A stretch of 64,000 nt of DNA. It comes from Methyloprofundus sp. (GTDB lineage: Bacteria; Pseudomonadota; Gammaproteobacteria; Methylococcales; Methylomonadaceae). The stretch spans positions 1 to 64,000 of the forward strand of contig JACUUF010000005.1 of the NCBI GenBank assembly GCA_014859465.1, in the 5' to 3' direction. Below, piece after piece: positions 1-6,286 of this stretch. Position numbers and translations under genes: made by a program. The notes under the pieces were generated by a model. The model ran no database searches, was not told where the DNA came from, and saw nothing but the letters and a program-made list of their open reading frames with translations. Numbering within the stretch: position 1 is the stretch's first letter; the number at the start of each line of letters is the position of its first letter.

Positions 1-376
1 CCAATGACAACGTAGGGGCAACCCCCTGTGGTTGCCCATGCCCATGTTGCCCATGCCCATGTTGCCCATGAACCGAATCATAATTACCCGAACCAGGGCG
101 GCCCCCCGTGGCCGCCCCTACGATAACGATTCCGTGTATATGATTGGGCATAGCAATAAATGCATCAATACCAATGCCTGGATAATGGGGCGGGATTTGA
201 TCCCAAATCGTTTGCACCATTTTTCCCGCATCGTTCAACACCATCTCGCCTTCAATAATCTCTCCAAACAAACAATCTCTGTTTTGTGTGCAAATTGTCA
301 CAAAATACGCACCTGCCTGAGAATAATCATATCCTTTTAACCTGATAGATCGACGATTATGCTTCTGATTATTCAT
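1..376 (-). CDS. REP-associated tyrosine transposase (RayT/Y1_Tnp), partial
   Basis: This gene runs off the left edge, so its C-terminus and the catalytic tyrosine are not visible. The start at 376 gives MNNQKHNRRSIRLKGYDYSQ, then AYFVTICTQNR and LFGEI, and then PNHIHGI with the HUH metal-binding pair. These are hallmarks of the Y1/RayT transposases that act on REP palindromes through single-stranded DNA. After the HUH motif the frame runs through low-complexity GQHGH repeats and QGVAPT, which are translations of REP-like sequence (see repeats). The ATG overlaps the stop of the DUF4391 gene by 4 bases (ATGA). The family assignment is firm; activity cannot be judged. Confidence 0.8.
   Translation of the reverse strand, partial: MNNQKHNRRSIRLKGYDYSQAGAYFVTICTQNRDCLFGEIIEGEMVLNDAGKMVQTIWDQIPPHYPGIGIDAFIAMPNHIHGIVIVGAATGGRPGSGNYDSVHGQHGHGQHGHGQPQGVAPTLSL
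11..122. repeat. Pair of inverted REP-like palindromes inside the RayT frame
   Basis: Two related 27-base elements lie in opposite orientation at 11-37 and 96-122. Both carry the outer motif cgtaggggc. Each contains its own palindrome: gggcaacc/ggttgccc in the first and gggcggcc/ggccgccc in the second. The pattern is that of REP elements mobilised by RayT proteins. Here both lie inside the coding frame of such a transposase and are translated. Confidence 0.7.
31..70. repeat. 15-bp tandem repeat, about 2.7 copies
   Basis: The unit gttgcccatgcccat starts at 31 and 46, with a partial copy from 61 to 70. On the minus strand it encodes a Gly-His-Gln repeat within the RayT protein. The 15-bp period keeps the frame, so copy number could change without breaking the gene. 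Confidence 0.85.
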
Positions 377-1137
377 AAATTCACCACCATTTCAGCAAGT
401 TCACGTTCCATCTGTTTAATCTGTGTATTCAGCTCCACCTGCCGGTTGAAAGCCGCTTTTTTCAGCTGCCCGCGCAGCTCCGATATTCTTGATTCAATTT
501 CCCGGCACCGCGTCAGCTGCGCCAGCCGATCTCCGACTTTACCGATGGTAAAGGCTCCGGATAACACCGAGCATTCGTATCCGGTAAAACGATCCGTCCA
601 GGCATTGTATAAAGACCCATAGTTCTGAAGCGGCATGTTGCCCCATGCAAGTGATGCAACAAAGGCCGCTTCTCGGTCATTGAATGCCTCGCAATTCATC
701 CAGCCAGTGGTATAAAAACGCTCGGCAACAAAGGCTCCATGCTCCGCCTGACTGAACCGTTTTGGGGCGATGCTCAGTGCAAATTCGCCAGTTTCAGTGT
801 AAAGACCCAGCATCAATGGATAAGGAATGACCCGGTGGATGATTTCAGCGATTCGCTTGTGGCCTTTCTGGGAGTTCATTTCGACCTGCAGAACTGCCAC
901 CTCAAGGTATTCCCGTTCATTGTCTCTGTAAGGAAGAATCGGACAAGTTGAGGGTTTCAGGGTGTATTCCCAATACACGTTTTTCACGTTTTCCCGAAAC
1001 AGCTTTTTATCACTGGCAACGAGTTCACCACTTTCAAGAAACTGCTTTTTCGGAACCCGCTTTCCCAGCAGAGCCGCCTCGGGAAAGGAGATTGTCTTCC
1101 AGACGTATTCAATGGCTGCTTTTTTATTATCCGGCAT
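373..1137 (-). CDS. DUF4391 domain protein
   Basis: A 254-aa protein that I recognise as DUF4391. Near the N-terminus it has the typical GKRVPKKQFLE segment. The middle carries EVAVLQVEMNSQKG and IIHRVIPYPLMLGLYTETGEF, followed by an acidic/aromatic part and a C-terminal coiled coil (about residues 215-250, rich in E/R/Q). I chose the ATG at 1137 over a GTG at 1152 because GGAGG sits 6 bases upstream. It overlaps the helicase gene by 11 bases. DUF4391 genes are often found beside SNF2-type helicases and DNA methylases in defence loci. The biochemical role is unknown. Confidence 0.75.
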   Translation of the reverse strand: MPDNKKAAIEYVWKTISFPEAALLGKRVPKKQFLESGELVASDKKLFRENVKNVYWEYTLKPSTCPILPYRDNEREYLEVAVLQVEMNSQKGHKRIAEIIHRVIPYPLMLGLYTETGEFALSIAPKRFSQAEHGAFVAERFYTTGWMNCEAFNDREAAFVASLAWGNMPLQNYGSLYNAWTDRFTGYECSVLSGAFTIGKVGDRLAQLTRCREIESRISELRGQLKKAAFNRQVELNTQIKQMERELAEMVVNL

Positions 1138-4100
1138 TATCTGCCTCCTCACCCAAAAGGATCAGGTAGCTGACCACTTCAAAGTCATCCATGCCCTTAA
1201 AGCTGTTTTTATTGATTACGGTTCCACCGGGAGAGAAGAGACTTTCCACACCGCGCTCTTCAGCCGCTCCGGTGAGGGCCTGCACTGCTTTGGACAGCAG
1301 GTTGCGATACTGCGACATATCGGAACCTTTGCGTGTCAGGTTGGAAAGTCGGGTTGTGGCTTCATCGTCAACGGATTTCCTGTGGATACTCATCTTTTTC
1401 AGCAGATCCAGAATCTTTTTGGTTTGAGTGAATTGCAAAAGAACTGAACCGTCGTTTGATACATAGACTAAATAGTAGGGAGACAGGGCGTAGGTTGTGT
1501 CCGAAACGGTTTGAGCGCCTTCATTTTTAAGGCAAAAAATTACTCCCGGTGACAACTCGCCCTTTAATGAGTCGTCAATAGTGGCAACAGCAAAAGCTCC
1601 CGGCGGTATCCGCTCCAGCAGATTCTCATGTTCTTTTATGTAGTCAGTGAGGTCCATGCGGAAATCGTTCAAGGTAAGGTCGGTGATTGAAATGCCACCC
1701 TCAACATCCTCAATATCCAGAACTTCGTTTTGCAGTTTTTCAAGCTGCTTTCGCCGATAGTCGAGGTCGTTCATTTTTCCCGAATCGGTAAATTCGATTA
1801 CGTTCTCTTCACCGGTGGCCGAAATATCAAGCAGGACCATTCGCCCGGAAACGCGGGCCTCCAGATTGATGTATTCATCCAGCTCCATGTTGGGCCAGAA
1901 ATTCACCAGCTGGATTTTGTCATTCTTGGAGCCCAATCGATCAACACGCCCGAAGCGCTGAATAATACGAACCGGATTCCAGTGGATGTCATAGTTGATC
2001 AGATAATCGCAGTCCTGCAGGTTTTGCCCCTCTGAAATACAGTCTGTAGCAATCAGCAGGTCAATCTCGGCGGTGAGAGCAGAATCAATCTTATCCCGCT
2101 CTTTTGAAATGGGAGAAAAGGAGGTGATAATGGCCGCCAGATCTTTTCGTATGCCAGGCATCTCGGTCTTGTTTTCACCCGAGCCAGTCACCAGCGCGGA
2201 ATAAACCCCAAGCTCTCTATGCGCCCATTTTGCAGTATGTTCGTATAGATATTTTGCGGTGTCCGCAAATGCGGTAAAAATGATGATTTTTTTATTTTCC
2301 GGATTAATCGGGTTGGTCACCTTTTGCTGTATCAGTTCCTTCAACCGTCGCAGTTTTTCATCTTGCGGGGCTTTAACTGCCTGAGCAGATGAAATGAGCT
2401 TTTCCAGAATCTCCCGGTCCTCCTCGAGCTCTTGCTTCCAGCGAACCTTGTCCATATCCTGAATGAGGACTTTGACTTTTTTGCCGACTACAAAAGGAGA
2501 GAAGGCATCATCTTCAATTTCAATCTCCTCAATATCAAACTCTTCGACAGCCGCGTTGTTGTCATGGGCTGCAATTTTCTGGATCAGGCCGCTCACCTCA
2601 CCAAGAAGTTTCTCCAGCGTCATGGTAAAGGAGTTGATGGAGCTTTCCATGCGTTTGAAAAGGTTAACCCGCATCAGGTGAATCAAACTCTGCTCACGGT
2701 CAACCTGCCTGAAGACGGAGCCCCCGGCTACCTTTCGGTCATACTTGCGGCTATATTCTTCAGCCTTTTGCGGCAGAACATATTTCAAAGGAGCATAGGC
2801 GCTCAGGTTAAGCAGCCGTATGTCTCTATTGATGCTCTCAAGTGCTGGAAAGCGTCCCTCTGTATCGATGTCCGTTTTTATATTGACGGGTCTGAGCCTC
2901 TCCGGAAACTTCCCGATTTCGGACATATCATAATATTTTTCGATATGCTTCCTGGAACGTGCAATCGTCAGGAGGTCTAAGAGTTTGAAATAATCAAAGT
3001 TTAAAGTCTCGAGCAGCGATTCTGTGGTCCTTTGGCTTCCATCCAGAGTCAACCATGCGTTAAAACGCGTTTGAGCCATTTTAAGCGTCTGCTCAATGCT
3101 GACAATTCCATTTGACTTTAGAGCCTCATCTTTAGCTTCAACAATAAACGCCACTTGATTTTTCAGGTCGTTCATCCGGTTGTTTACAGGAGTCGCAGAA
3201 AGCATAAGAACTTTTGTTTTTACGCCTGCCTTGATGATGTCATTCATCAATTTGGAGTAACGGGTCAGAGAATCATCCTTGCGGGCCGGGTTGTTTCTAA
3301 AGTTGTGCGACTCATCGATGACTACAAGATCGTAGTTACCCCAATTCAGGGTTTCCAGATTGATCTCCCCGGACATGCCACGCAATCGCGTTAGATCGGT
3401 GTGATTCAATACATCGTAATTGAACCTGTCCGAGGCCATGATGTTTCGTTTGTCATTAACCGTATAAAGAGTCCAGTTTTCCCGCAGCTTTTTAGGGCAT
3501 AAAACCAGAACCCTATCATTGCGCAGTTCATAGTATTTAATGATTGCCAACGCTTCGAAGGTTTTACCCAAGCCCACGCTGTCCGCAATGATGCAACCGT
3601 TATAGCGTTCAATTTTATCGATGGCACCCAGCACACCATCACGCTGGAATTTGTAAAGCTTTTGCCAGACTTGAGTGCTTTTAATTCCGGTCTGGGTCTT
3701 AATGATTTTGTCTTCATCCAGCTCGCCGATAAAATCTCTGAAGATATTGAAAAGAGTCAGGAAGTAGATTTGCTGGGGAGTCTTGTCAGAGTAGATGAGA
3801 GCGAGGGATTCTTGCAAGGTGTCCCCAAAATCATCATTTTTTCTTCCCGAATCCCAAAGCTCATCAAACCACTTAATCAGTGAATGAGCTTCCTCAGAAC
3901 TGCGAAAGCAGGTATTCATGTGATGGGCTTCTGATGGAACAATACCCAAACCGTCGGTGGTGAAAGACGAACTACCCACAATAGCAAGGTGTTCACCGTT
4001 ATTGGCATGAGCCAGATGAATAAGATTCTGGTGTACCGATGATGGCAACTGGCGGACTTCACATTTCTGTTTCAGCCACTCCGAGCAATCCCGGGCGATG

Positions 4101-4366
4101 CGTGCAACATCAAGTCGATTTCGGAGGCGGCGGTCCAAGTTATTTCCGTGCAGATTATTTAGAAAACTCTCTTCATCATTGAGGCTTGGCACAAGGAGTC
4201 GAAAGTTGTTGATTTTAGAAAGCTCCCTTTTCAGCTCATCATACGCATAAAGAGAAAATAGAGCGGAAACCACAGAAAGAGTACATCTATCTGCGATATT
4301 TTCTTTGAGCTCGGAAACAACATTTCCCAGAGATTTGTTATCAAGTATTCCAGAAGAGTGCTTCAC
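1127..4366 (-). CDS. SNF2-type DEAD/DEAH helicase with PLD-like N-terminal region
   Basis: A 1079-aa superfamily 2 helicase. The first ~170 residues resemble a PLD-like domain: IVGSSSFTTDGLG at about 129-141 is the typical second half of an HKD motif, but the expected lysine is missing. The helicase core follows, with LYKFQRDGV at 237-245, Walker A ADSVGLGKT at 261-269, DESH at 351-354, SATP at 390-393, and the C-terminal lobe with ATDCISEGQNLQ and QRFGRVDRLGS near residue 805. Its GTG start overlaps the upstream HTH stop (GTGA) with GAGGG just before it. The context suggests a defence or restriction-like operon in which the helicase moves on DNA. The exact system is not recognised. Confidence 0.85.
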   Translation of the reverse strand: MKHSSGILDNKSLGNVVSELKENIADRCTLSVVSALFSLYAYDELKRELSKINNFRLLVPSLNDEESFLNNLHGNNLDRRLRNRLDVARIARDCSEWLKQKCEVRQLPSSVHQNLIHLAHANNGEHLAIVGSSSFTTDGLGIVPSEAHHMNTCFRSSEEAHSLIKWFDELWDSGRKNDDFGDTLQESLALIYSDKTPQQIYFLTLFNIFRDFIGELDEDKIIKTQTGIKSTQVWQKLYKFQRDGVLGAIDKIERYNGCIIADSVGLGKTFEALAIIKYYELRNDRVLVLCPKKLRENWTLYTVNDKRNIMASDRFNYDVLNHTDLTRLRGMSGEINLETLNWGNYDLVVIDESHNFRNNPARKDDSLTRYSKLMNDIIKAGVKTKVLMLSATPVNNRMNDLKNQVAFIVEAKDEALKSNGIVSIEQTLKMAQTRFNAWLTLDGSQRTTESLLETLNFDYFKLLDLLTIARSRKHIEKYYDMSEIGKFPERLRPVNIKTDIDTEGRFPALESINRDIRLLNLSAYAPLKYVLPQKAEEYSRKYDRKVAGGSVFRQVDREQSLIHLMRVNLFKRMESSINSFTMTLEKLLGEVSGLIQKIAAHDNNAAVEEFDIEEIEIEDDAFSPFVVGKKVKVLIQDMDKVRWKQELEEDREILEKLISSAQAVKAPQDEKLRRLKELIQQKVTNPINPENKKIIIFTAFADTAKYLYEHTAKWAHRELGVYSALVTGSGENKTEMPGIRKDLAAIITSFSPISKERDKIDSALTAEIDLLIATDCISEGQNLQDCDYLINYDIHWNPVRIIQRFGRVDRLGSKNDKIQLVNFWPNMELDEYINLEARVSGRMVLLDISATGEENVIEFTDSGKMNDLDYRRKQLEKLQNEVLDIEDVEGGISITDLTLNDFRMDLTDYIKEHENLLERIPPGAFAVATIDDSLKGELSPGVIFCLKNEGAQTVSDTTYALSPYYLVYVSNDGSVLLQFTQTKKILDLLKKMSIHRKSVDDEATTRLSNLTRKGSDMSQYRNLLSKAVQALTGAAEERGVESLFSPGGTVINKNSFKGMDDFEVVSYLILLGEEADNAG

Positions 4367-4560
4367 TGATTTTCACCCTCTTTGAAATCTCTTGCTTTTC
4401 CGTCACGAACCCAAGTATCCACCTCGTCTTTCTTGAATTTCCAGAGGCGGCCGATTTTATGGGCAGGCATGCCTTTCTCGCTTATCCACTTATAGACGGT
4501 ATCTCGTTTGATCCCGAGATAGTCTCCAATTTCATCTACGGATAGCCATCTGTCTTCCAT
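4363..4560 (-). CDS. Excisionase/MerR-like helix-turn-helix DNA-binding protein
   Basis: A 65-aa protein starting MEDRWLSVDEIGDYLGI. It has a winged HTH of the HTH_17/excisionase type: VDEIGDYLGIKRDTVYKW, then GMPAHKIGRLWKFKKDEVDTWV. I took the ATG at 4560 because GGAG lies 6 bases upstream; tandem ATGs at 4575 and 4572 are alternatives with a weaker site. It is the first gene of the operon and its stop overlaps the helicase start. Such proteins either regulate their own island operon or act as recombination directionality factors. No integrase is visible here, so a regulatory role is more likely. Confidence 0.8.
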   Translation of the reverse strand: MEDRWLSVDEIGDYLGIKRDTVYKWISEKGMPAHKIGRLWKFKKDEVDTWVRDGKARDFKEGENQ

Positions 4561-4711
4561 TTTCGACTCCATCATTCTTTTGAGGGCCGCCCAAACGGCT
4601 CGTCAAGTAGTTGACCGGACAGCACCCCAGATGGGCACAATCCGGCTACATTAGGTTAAACAGGGTTAAAGATACATGGATGGAATGAAAAAATCAAGCT
4701 TTCTTTCCGGA

Positions 4712-5227
4712 TTAAACCGAGTTTAGCCGAATTTCTTGCCTTTCCCAGTGCCCCTCGGAAAGGCGTACACTGCCTCGGAGAATATGGGAGAGACCGTGGT
4801 ATGTCCAACAAGAGAAAGGGCCACCTTGGGTTTTGACCGCCACTAAAACCCGCCGATACATGCTCCTTCCATCGGGGTTAAATGCCTCCAGCCGATCGAT
4901 GGGCGGCAGATCGAAACCGGGATTGGCGAAGGTCATCAGCTCCCCGTGGACCAGATCCCAGTCGCCTTCCGGTCGGATCATGGCATTCTCAGGTAGCTCG
5001 ATGGTGTTCTGTGTCTGGGTATCGGCCAGCGGATCGGCAGTGCCGGTGGCCAGTATGCTGCTCTCCGGGACTTCCAAGGCCGGGAATCCCGCTGGCAGCT
5101 GGTAGAGCCTGCCCCAAGTGGTGGCGGGGTCGATACTGATGGCCCGGGTGCAGAACCGGTCAAAGTTCCAGAATCCACGTTTCAAGGTTCCGTAAACAAA
5201 GAGCCGGAGGTGGTTGTCGTTGTTCAT
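4712..5227 (-). CDS. Gamma-glutamylcyclotransferase family protein (AIG2/GGCT fold)
   Basis: A 171-aa protein. The N-terminal LFVYGTLKRG is the signature substrate-binding loop of the family, and IDRLEAFNPDG matches the conserved LDRLE region that normally follows the catalytic acid. Family members release 5-oxoproline from gamma-glutamyl amines or peptides; the substrate here is unknown. AAGGAG lies upstream of the ATG, and the start overlaps the stop of the truncated glutamine amidotransferase (ATGA). That pairing occurs in intact form in other genomes, so this gene appears to be the surviving half of a former gamma-glutamyl module. Confidence 0.8.
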   Translation of the reverse strand: MNNDNHLRLFVYGTLKRGFWNFDRFCTRAISIDPATTWGRLYQLPAGFPALEVPESSILATGTADPLADTQTQNTIELPENAMIRPEGDWDLVHGELMTFANPGFDLPPIDRLEAFNPDGRSMYRRVLVAVKTQGGPFSCWTYHGLSHILRGSVRLSEGHWERQEIRLNSV

Positions 5228-5520
5228 GCATTCACTCCTTCGGGTAAGGTTCCTTTTCTTTCCTGACAGACAAATTTAAAGGGTTGGCTCTGCCACTCCT
5301 TGAGGGTTTCATGGCGGAAGGTCAGCATGGTAAGTGGCGGTATTTCCAGTTCACGCCAGCCACGCTGGTCATCCAGAGCGGCTTCGATGTATTCCGGTTC
5401 CGAGGCATAAAGCACCGCCCGGTGTTTGCGGCTGTAACGCAGCGACAGCGGCTTGTTCCCCTTGATGACGGTAATGGCCCCGGGATCGAGCCGTGAGGCC
5501 AACACGGCGCTCATTTGATA
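5224..5520 (-). pseudogene. Class-II glutamine amidotransferase, C-terminal fragment
   Basis: About 96 codons resembling the C-terminal part of class-II (Ntn-type) glutamine amidotransferases: VLASRLDPGAITVIKG, NKPLSLRYSRKHRAVLYASE, then WRELEIPPLTMLTF. The N-terminal catalytic cysteine and most of the Ntn domain are absent. The homologous sequence begins abruptly at about 5515-5520, where it joins a transposase N-terminus. An ATG happens to be in frame at 5514, so a short product could be made, but it would lack the active site. The 3' end is intact and coupled to the cyclotransferase gene. Confidence 0.7.
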
Positions 5521-5647
5521 TCGTCCAACCTTTTCCTAACAGGTAGACGGTTTTGATCCGATCAGCAAAGCGCTTATCGGACGCTTGGCGATGCGCGATC
5601 TCTAATTCGTCGAGTTCTGGTTGGGAAAGTTCGTATTTTGATGACAT
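5521..5647 (-). pseudogene. IS630-type transposase, N-terminal stub
   Basis: From an ATG at 5647 the frame reads MSSKYELSQPELDELEIAHR, then RQASDKRFADRIKTVYLLGKGWT. This matches the opening helices of IS630-family transposases (typically HRQASDKR...DRIKAV.LLGKGW). After GKGWT the match stops and the amidotransferase fragment follows directly. The HTH remainder and the DDE catalytic domain are gone, so this is only a scar of insertion and deletion. Confidence 0.65.
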
Positions 5648-5908: not shown

Positions 5909-6286
5909 TGGTGGAGACGGGGGGAATCGAACCCCCGTCCGCAAGCACTCCGCCTTTGGATCTACATGTTTATTCCGCGCTTTTGATTTAGCTAGAAGCT
6001 ACCCGTCGGACCAAGATACTTTTAGCGATTTCGATTGGATTTAGCGTGTTTGAACTCCGAACAAAGTCCTTAACGCGATCTTATGTAGAGTGACTCCTGA
6101 GTGTTCCGAAGAACCTACCCGCATAAGCACAGATAGTCAGGAGAATGGTGCTGTGTTTAAGCAGCTAAAGCCATTGAGTAGTTTTCGTCATTTGCGAATA
6201 CTTAAGTTTCAGTAGATTTTACGAGGTGTACTGTCCTCGACATGCCCCTAAGGTTTTGCTACCCACGTCGAAACCTGGTCGTCCCC
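5909..6286 (-). ncRNA. ssrA: tmRNA (SsrA), one-piece
   Basis: tmRNA rescues stalled ribosomes by trans-translation. The 5' end GGGGACGA at 6286 pairs with the 3' CGTCTCC that precedes an encoded CCA, forming a 7-bp acceptor stem with one G-T wobble. GTTCGA in the T arm lies near the 3' end. The tag frame at 6195-6157 starts with GCA and reads ANDENYSMALAA followed by TAA, a typical gammaproteobacterial tag ending in ALAA. Length is 378 nt. The 3' end faces the accessory region at 1-5850; ssrA 3' ends are common integration targets. Confidence 0.96.

What the first reader, a model, noticed from the sequence alone, without database searches (positions are those of the whole stretch)
373..4560. 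HTH-SNF2/PLD helicase-DUF4391 operon beside ssrA: candidate defence system
Three overlapping genes encode a regulator-like HTH, a large helicase with PLD-like N-terminus and DUF4391. Related helicase-DUF4391 pairs usually accompany a DNA methylase. None is visible, so either it lies left of position 1 beyond the transposase or this is a methylase-free variant with a Y1 enzyme as possible nuclease partner.
Basis: partly seen in the sequence, partly recalled or inferred. Interest (0 to 1): 0.65.

Follow-up and report, generated by a model that had tools for sequence, protein, structure and literature searches.

The report
Front half of helicase-extended restriction operon
This is the first half of a bacterial restriction-modification operon that carries an extra DNA-pumping helicase and an adaptor-like protein; the expected methylase and nuclease genes lie past the end of the contig or are lost, and relatives suggest how the extra proteins plug into a methylase.

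Summary
The three genes are real, intact and on the minus strand: HTH (4363-4575), Snf2 helicase HEL (1127-4366), DUF4391 (373-1152), then a RAYT-like Y1 gene (2-376) cut by the contig end (window base 1 = contig base 1). "Methylase-free variant" is unlikely for the family: among the 80 closest relatives, type III mod follows in 63 of 65 and res in 59 of 60 with enough sequence; the misses end in a Tn3 transposon or contig edges. Whether this copy keeps mod-res is unresolved: no continuation was found in its genome, which holds a second, complete copy. HEL's PLD-like domain lacks HxK...GSxN in 97 of 97 DUF4391-linked helicases; helicase motifs stay. A sister helicase clade (7 loci) keeps the motif in 7 of 7 and sits beside a type IIG methylase whose N-terminal domain is homologous to DUF4391 (hhalign 97%, E 1e-10; control 0.1%). 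Best reading: accessory translocase with dead nuclease plus helicase-methylase adaptor, added to type III restriction-modification. Other defence genes are embedded in some relatives' operons. New variant of a known kind; moderate interest.

The parts
4363..4575 (-). HTH gene (excisionase/MAD1-type helix-turn-helix), first gene of the operon; probable regulator
   Evidence: HTH_17 E 2.4e-16; NF047737 83.3 bits over cut-off 80. Annotated as MAD1-type HTH upstream of the same operon in E. coli SW071618
1127..4366 (-). HEL: Snf2/RapA-like helicase-translocase, 1079 aa, with a degenerate PLD (HKD) domain at the N-terminus
   Evidence: ATPase motifs GLGKT, DESH, SATP, QRFGRxDR present; HxK...GSxN absent; AlphaFold2 model mean pLDDT 74.9, best Foldseek match RapA E 1.4e-14, SauUSI E 2.8e-10
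373..1152 (-). DUF4391 protein, 259 aa; proposed helicase-methylase adaptor
   Evidence: PF14335 E 5e-69; model mean pLDDT 94.6; profile-profile match to the N-terminal domain of type IIG methylases of the sister class, 97%, E 1.2e-10
2..376 (-). RAYT-like Y1/HUH transposase-family gene, N-terminal 125 codons, cut by the contig end; its ATG overlaps the DUF4391 stop (ATGA); sits where mod, or embedded genes, stand in relatives
   Evidence: NF047646 E 4e-4, far below cut-off; joint RAYT HMM 144 bits, a model that included this sequence; HUH motif read by eye

Best explanation
The locus is the front half (regulator HTH - HEL - DUF4391) of a helicase-extended type III restriction-modification operon, HTH-HEL-DUF4391-mod-res, on an acquired stretch beside ssrA. 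Shown: gene order in relatives, intact ATPase motifs, loss of the PLD catalytic motif, purifying selection, and homology of DUF4391 to a methylase N-terminal domain in a sister two-gene system. Inferred: Mod recognises and methylates the host's asymmetric site and Res cuts; HEL pumps along double-stranded DNA but does not cut, because its PLD domain is dead; DUF4391 docks HEL onto the Mod-containing complex, as it does in cis in the sister class where it is fused to the methylase. HEL would then extend the reach or strengthen the engagement of Mod-Res on invading DNA, for example by clearing proteins or moving the complex. In the sister class HEL keeps its own PLD nuclease and would be the restriction subunit itself.
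For: Order: of the 80 closest relatives, DUF4391 after HEL in 73 of 74 with >=600 bp downstream, mod in 63 of 65 with >=3 kb, res in 59 of 60 with >=6 kb; misses: short contig (L075), Tn3 transposase (L088), contig end inside embedded GajA-GajB (L090), contig end after mod (L031). 8 of 13 HEL loci fetched from the window's own family show HEL-DUF4391-mod-res, the other 5 are the sister class. Same operon in E. coli, Acinetobacter, Leuconostoc and Erysipelothrix-phage records. A second copy in the window's own genome is complete, with PADLOC type III methyltransferase (767 bits) and restriction enzyme (1105 bits). PLD motif: 0 of 97 in DUF4391-linked HEL, 7 of 7 in the sister clade; ATPase motifs GLGKT, DESH, SATP and QRFGRxDR in 110 of 110. 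Sister clade monophyletic, support 1.0. DUF4391 versus sister methylase N-terminus: hhalign 97%, E 1.2e-10 over 135 columns; control with the next segment of the same methylase 0.1%, E 0.41; PF14335 found directly in 3 of 3 such methylases, E 1e-4 to 3e-6, all below the curated cut-off.
Against: This copy's mod and res are not seen, and no continuation was found in its genome. The 80 relatives are the best 80 of 402, so biased to close ones. One more distant locus has another order, mod-res-HEL-DUF4391 (L183). In the nearest relative, plasmid pHRM2a, res is reduced to a fragment. Murray et al. 2021 (PMC8259958; abstract, passages and whole Discussion seen) report an extra SF2 ATPase beside type III mod that was not needed for methylation and was not detected in a cutting enzyme preparation; whether that ATPase is HEL was not established here, and in one of their two systems the ~140 bp between ATPase and mod leaves no room for DUF4391. 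No protein contact, translocation or phage protection was tested. The control profile A7 has only 4 sequences.
Confidence: 0.6

Rival explanations
1. Truncated remnant: the mod-res half of this copy was lost or displaced when the RAYT-like gene arrived, leaving HTH-HEL-DUF4391 to work with the complete second copy's Mod-Res or to decay.
For: RAYT sits directly after DUF4391; no mod or res of this class other than the complete C33 copy was found in the genome; pHRM2a shows partial loss, res cut to a fragment.
Against: HEL and DUF4391 are intact and under strong purifying selection; the assembly simply ends inside the RAYT gene, at tandem and inverted repeats where assemblies break; mobile stretches are easily lost from bins.
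Confidence: 0.3
2. HEL-DUF4391 controls rather than strengthens restriction: it strips or remodels Mod-Res on host DNA (self-protection, restriction alleviation).
For: Dead PLD domain and intact ATPase motifs; RapA, the best structural and sequence match in the PDB, is a remodeller; per PMC8259958 an extra ATPase beside mod is not required for cutting.
Against: The sister class keeps the nuclease motif, which points to a restriction role in the ancestor; nothing here measures self-restriction.
Confidence: 0.2
3. Independent defence module that only shares an operon with type III R-M.
For: Other unrelated defence genes are embedded in the same operons, so co-residence alone proves little.
Against: HEL and DUF4391 are near-constant while embedded genes vary; the DUF4391-methylase fusion in the sister class links the pair to methylation.
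Confidence: 0.12
4. One reading: methylase-free defence variant with the Y1 enzyme as nuclease partner.
For: In the window no methylase is seen; RAYT/Y1 genes lie between HEL and methylase in 3 of 7 sister-class loci, in genomes with only 3 to 11 RAYT-family matches.
Against: In those 3 loci the methylase is present; in the DUF4391-linked loci scanned the RAYT is found only in the window; the Y1 call rests on half a gene with weak family scores.
Confidence: 0.05

Closest known systems
Type III R-M systems with an extra SF2 ATPase gene 5' of mod (Eco86II, BspHIV; Murray et al. 2021, PMC8259958: abstract, passages, whole Discussion seen)
   Same: Extra helicase-like ATPase without PD-ExK nuclease motif, upstream of type III mod and res, reported in more than 500 genomes, role unknown
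   Different: No DUF4391 mentioned in the text searched; ~140 bp between ATPase and mod in BspHIV leaves no room for it; homology to HEL could not be tested (Eco86II locus not reached)
Type ISP enzymes (LlaGI, LlaBIII; described in PMC3874165, passages seen)
   Same: Sister class works like a split version: nuclease + translocase + gamma-type methylase + specificity domain
   Different: Two genes, PLD instead of Mrr-like nuclease, Snf2-type motor; the window's class uses type III Mod-Res instead
DISARM (DrmD Snf2 helicase, DrmMI methylase)
   Same: Snf2 helicase beside a methylase; DrmD models match HEL weakly
   Different: DrmD NCBIfam score 161.6 against cut-off 610; neighbours are DUF4391, type III mod and res
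PADLOC model C3a139 (HKD+Snf2)
   Same: Best model for HEL (460 bits) and for the sister helicase (386 bits)
   Different: A single-protein model named for an HKD domain; in the window's class the HKD motif is degenerate. Name not found in the paper library
Guilt-by-embedding defence candidates (Payne et al. preprint, seen only as cited in passages of PMC12255303 and PMC12988326)
   Same: Defence genes embedded inside other defence operons; several embedded genes here match its PDC models
   Different: Not a statement about HEL-DUF4391

Membership tests
Type III restriction-modification | mod gene (beta-class methyltransferase) in the operon | not testable with these tools
   Window ends inside the gene after DUF4391. 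Met in relatives: 63 of 65 with enough sequence
Type III restriction-modification | res gene (helicase-nuclease) in the operon | not testable with these tools
   As above; in relatives 59 of 60. HEL itself is not Res: it scores on Snf2/C3a139 models
HEL-DUF4391 type III operon family | HEL directly followed by DUF4391 on the same strand | tested here: met
   73 of 74 relatives with enough sequence
HEL-DUF4391 type III operon family | PLD motif HxK...GSxN degenerate in HEL | tested here: met
   absent in 97 of 97 DUF4391-linked HEL including the window; present in 7 of 7 sister-class HEL
DISARM class 1 | DrmD at its curated cut-off | tested here: not met
   NF038317 161.6 bits against 610; NF038318 112.7 against 950
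MADS | MAD1 HTH | tested here: met
   NF047737 83.3 bits against 80
MADS | the other mad genes beside it | tested here: inconclusive
   HEL, DUF4391 and the Y1 gene gave no mad hit among the rows shown (best 25 of 41 shown for HEL); genes left of the window unseen. The HTH type alone is widespread
Phage-defence system (function) | protection against phage or plasmids | not tested
   needs bench work
Type ISP | nuclease, translocase, methylase and specificity domain in one polypeptide | tested here: not met
   separate genes in the window and in the sister class

The most novel reading that the evidence does not exclude
DUF4391 is a dedicated coupling domain between an Snf2 helicase and a DNA methyltransferase. 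It is fused to the methylase where the helicase still carries an intact PLD nuclease (two-gene HKD-Snf2 plus type IIG-like system), and is a separate adaptor where the helicase's nuclease died and cutting was handed over to a type III Res. The HEL-DUF4391 pair would be a portable motor module that has been fitted to two unrelated kinds of R-M enzyme.
Probability: 0.45. Interest if true: 0.7.

Novelty: new variant of a known kind. Interest (0 to 1): 0.5.

Why it matters
The extra ATPase beside type III R-M genes has been an open question in print (PMC8259958). The comparison here gives it a testable answer: a translocase with a dead nuclease, joined to the methylase by DUF4391. It also gives a first functional hypothesis for DUF4391, a domain that the open library mentions in one paper only, and names an operon whose gaps are a place to look for further defence genes.

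Tried and rejected
Looking for the missing left side. The first 420 bases matched only themselves in the genome, the Y1 fragment only itself. Other mod/res pairs in the genome are on C33 (complete second copy), C172, C197 and C220; on C172 the mod scores 464 bits against about 700-980 for most HEL-linked mods and follows other small genes, and none of C172, C197 and C220 shares a 21-mer with window 1-400. Of eight RAYT-family matches in the genome none, apart from the window's own, lies within 800 bp of a contig end (places, lengths); I read the ORFs of three of the loci.

DUF4391 fold: Foldseek against the PDB gave no match at E <= 0.001; VIA-align matched only the C-terminal helices 202-259 at Z <= 7.8, in the range expected by chance. 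This does not show a new fold. Sequence search of the PDB gave nothing better than E 0.14.

HEL full-length model is only moderate (pLDDT 74.9, pTM 0.50). VIA-align rows cover mainly the Snf2 core; the PLD domain was not folded alone.

Link to Eco86II: strain NCTC86's record could be opened but not searched. Three E. coli HEL searches matched 68, 88 and 88 of 5426 genomes; NCTC86 was not among the rows shown, which are capped lists, so this stays open.

Y1 as partner: a RAYT HMM over 116 loci found RAYT in the window and in 3 of 7 sister-class loci; two of these three RAYTs are close relatives of each other. The model was built from those four sequences, so more divergent RAYTs could be missed. 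Held as a side observation.

Full report
What is there. Reading the minus strand, the window begins (in gene order) with an HTH gene 4363-4575, a 1079-residue Snf2 helicase (HEL) 1127-4366, DUF4391 373-1152 and the first 125 codons of a RAYT-like Y1 gene, 2-376, that runs off the contig. All neighbours overlap: 4, 26 and 4 bp. Window base 1 is base 1 of contig C71, 66,662 bp. Domain calls are firm for HTH, helicase and DUF4391, weak for the PLD-like N-terminus of HEL (PLDc_2 E 7e-4) and weak for the half Y1 gene.

It is a functional operon by its evolution. HEL is 96.4% identical in protein to a gene on plasmid pHRM2a of Desulforapulum autotrophicum, DUF4391 86.5%; dN/dS is 0.044-0.068 for HEL (four relatives, one partial) and 0.064-0.138 for DUF4391 (three relatives). 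G+C of HTH-HEL-DUF4391 is 46.6% against 40.6% for the window. Together with the plasmid relative in another phylum this says acquired DNA. The genome's family contains Ca. Methylobacter favarea: G031 contig C74 and L051 have the same length, 31,322, so the host is probably a methanotroph; this is inference.

What the relatives show. One scan of species genomes gave 402 relatives, of which the best 80 were kept. With HMMs for HEL, DUF4391, mod and res built from these loci: DUF4391 follows HEL in 73 of 74 loci with at least 600 bp beyond HEL; type III mod in 63 of 65 with at least 3 kb; res in 59 of 60 with at least 6 kb. The misses: L075 is a 6.4-kb contig that ends 2 kb on; L088 has a Tn3 transposase (1313.7 bits) after DUF4391 and a small ORF; L090 runs into GajA (E 1.6e-233) and a cut GajB (E 5.5e-142), then the contig ends; L031 ends after mod. 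The same operon stands in E. coli plasmid and chromosome records, an Acinetobacter plasmid, a Leuconostoc plasmid and an Erysipelothrix phage, and complete in the window's own genome on C33, where PADLOC names the genes type III methyltransferase and restriction enzyme (767 and 1105 bits). The nearest relative, pHRM2a, has mod but only a fragment of res. In one distant locus, L183, the order is mod-res-HEL-DUF4391.

Can this copy be completed? Not from the assembly. The genome (418 contigs, 99.4% complete, 7% contamination) holds no contig that continues the Y1 gene, and its other mod/res genes belong to C33 or to other kinds of system.

A sister class explains the parts. In the window's family, 20 of 101 genomes have a HEL match of 400 bits or more (my count of the rows). 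I fetched 13 HEL loci from these: 8 are HEL-DUF4391-mod-res; 5 have none of the three genes. Those 5, and 2 more among 13 loci fetched after a search of 369 genomes of the class, sit beside a gene of about 1200 residues with Eco57I methylase and TaqI_C specificity domains, best PADLOC models type IIG. The other 11 of those 13: 9 have DUF4391, 2 have neither gene in the sequence held. The 7 sister helicases, 41-44% identical to the window's, form one clade with support 1.0.

Two contrasts between the classes carry the argument. First, the PLD motif HxK...GSxN is present in 7 of 7 sister helicases and in 0 of 97 DUF4391-linked ones (8 of the 97 have an HxK at another place in the stretch); six helicases with neither neighbour in view also lack it. 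The ATPase motifs GLGKT, DESH, SATP and QRFGRxDR are in 110 of 110, TDCISEGQN in 103. Second, the sister methylase begins with a domain homologous to DUF4391: hhalign 97.0%, E 1.2e-10 over 135 columns, against 0.1% and E 0.41 for the following segment of the same methylase; Pfam DUF4391 itself appears there in 3 of 3 proteins scanned, E 1.3e-4 to 2.7e-6, below its cut-off. No separate DUF4391 was found in the 7 sister loci.

Mechanism. A domain that is fused to the methylase in one class and follows the helicase as a separate protein in the other is most simply an adaptor between the two. In the sister class the helicase has motor and nuclease and would be the restriction subunit, much like a split Type ISP enzyme (Type ISP as described in PMC3874165, passages seen). 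In the window's class the nuclease is dead, and a type III Mod-Res pair supplies recognition, methylation and cutting; HEL would remain as a motor. What it does for Mod-Res (extend reach, clear roadblocks, or restrain) is inferred; I favour strengthening restriction.

Embedded genes. Between DUF4391 and mod, 20 of 69 loci have a gap of 250 bp or more, and between mod and res 25 of 62. Families found there in one to five proteins each include RhuM, GmrSD, Schlafen-AlbA, Fic, AbiEii, Abi_2, PD-(D/E)XK, DarT, Macro, YhcG, OLD-type ATPase and PIN. Embedding of defence genes in defence operons is already described (Payne et al. preprint, seen only as cited in PMC12255303 and PMC12988326). The window's Y1 gene is in the first gap, its ATG overlapping the DUF4391 stop.

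In print. DUF4391 occurs in one paper of the held library, as a table entry. PMC8259958 (abstract, passages and whole Discussion seen) reports an extra SF2 helicase-like ATPase 5' of type III mod in more than 500 genomes, not required for methylation and not found in a cutting preparation of Eco86II, role unclear. Whether it is HEL I could not test. Searches for a type III operon with HKD-Snf2 helicase, DUF4391 or Eco57I partner showed no paper that describes the adaptor reading; the library lacks most subscription journals and bioRxiv.

Verdict. Observation confirmed; interpretation partly supported. The system is a new variant of a known kind, with a testable proposal for DUF4391 and for the silent nuclease. 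Interest 0.5.

Noticed in passing
L152:3930-4490, L154:7589-8137, L156:12635-13174: RAYT/Y1 genes lie between HEL and the type IIG methylase in 3 of 7 sister-class loci, in both gene orders, in genomes with only 3 to 11 RAYT-family matches. Why this slot attracts RAYTs is unexplained; L153 has a Uma2 nuclease-family gene in the same slot.
   Followed up: partly
window 1-140: Inside the Y1 reading frame lie GTAGGGGC...GCCCCTAC-type inverted repeats and a 15-bp tandem repeat, next to the contig break; the pattern occurs twice in the window, both here.
   Followed up: partly
window 4712-5647: Upstream of the operon: a gamma-glutamyl-cyclotransferase-like gene and the C-terminal part of a class II glutamine amidotransferase-like gene that is whole in L060, where both also precede the same HTH-HEL genes. 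ORF 5369-5647 looks by eye like the start of an IS630-type transposase; no family hit.
   Followed up: partly
window 5909-6286: The operon lies on the 3' side of ssrA (tmRNA), a usual integration site of islands (recalled); no integrase or att repeat was sought.
   Followed up: no
window 373-4366 versus L124: Mosaic identity to pHRM2a: HEL 94.0% nucleotide identity (dS 0.25) but the adjoining DUF4391 81.9% (dS 1.10), suggesting recombination between the genes.
   Followed up: no
L008:17133-19998: Beside the complete second copy on C33 stand genes that look by eye like dynamin/GTPase-like membrane-remodelling proteins; family scans gave nothing for one and weak GTPase hits for the other.
   Followed up: partly
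L128:12974-15676 and other E. coli strains: The gap between DUF4391 and mod holds a 900-aa ATP-binding protein in 0H25-type strains; in 44 of 52 genomes with a match only its two ends, about 19% of the query in the rows shown, are kept at about 84%: the embedded gene appears to be swapped or deleted between strains.
   Followed up: partly
L125:6241-11853: In the Acinetobacter gerneri plasmid the HEL operon directly follows TnsA, Mu-type transposase, TniB and TniQ genes, as if carried by a Tn7-like transposon.
   Followed up: no
L129:3696-6497: In Erysipelothrix phage phi1605 the complete operon stands a few kb from annotated macrolide-resistance genes mef(A) and msr(D).
   Followed up: no
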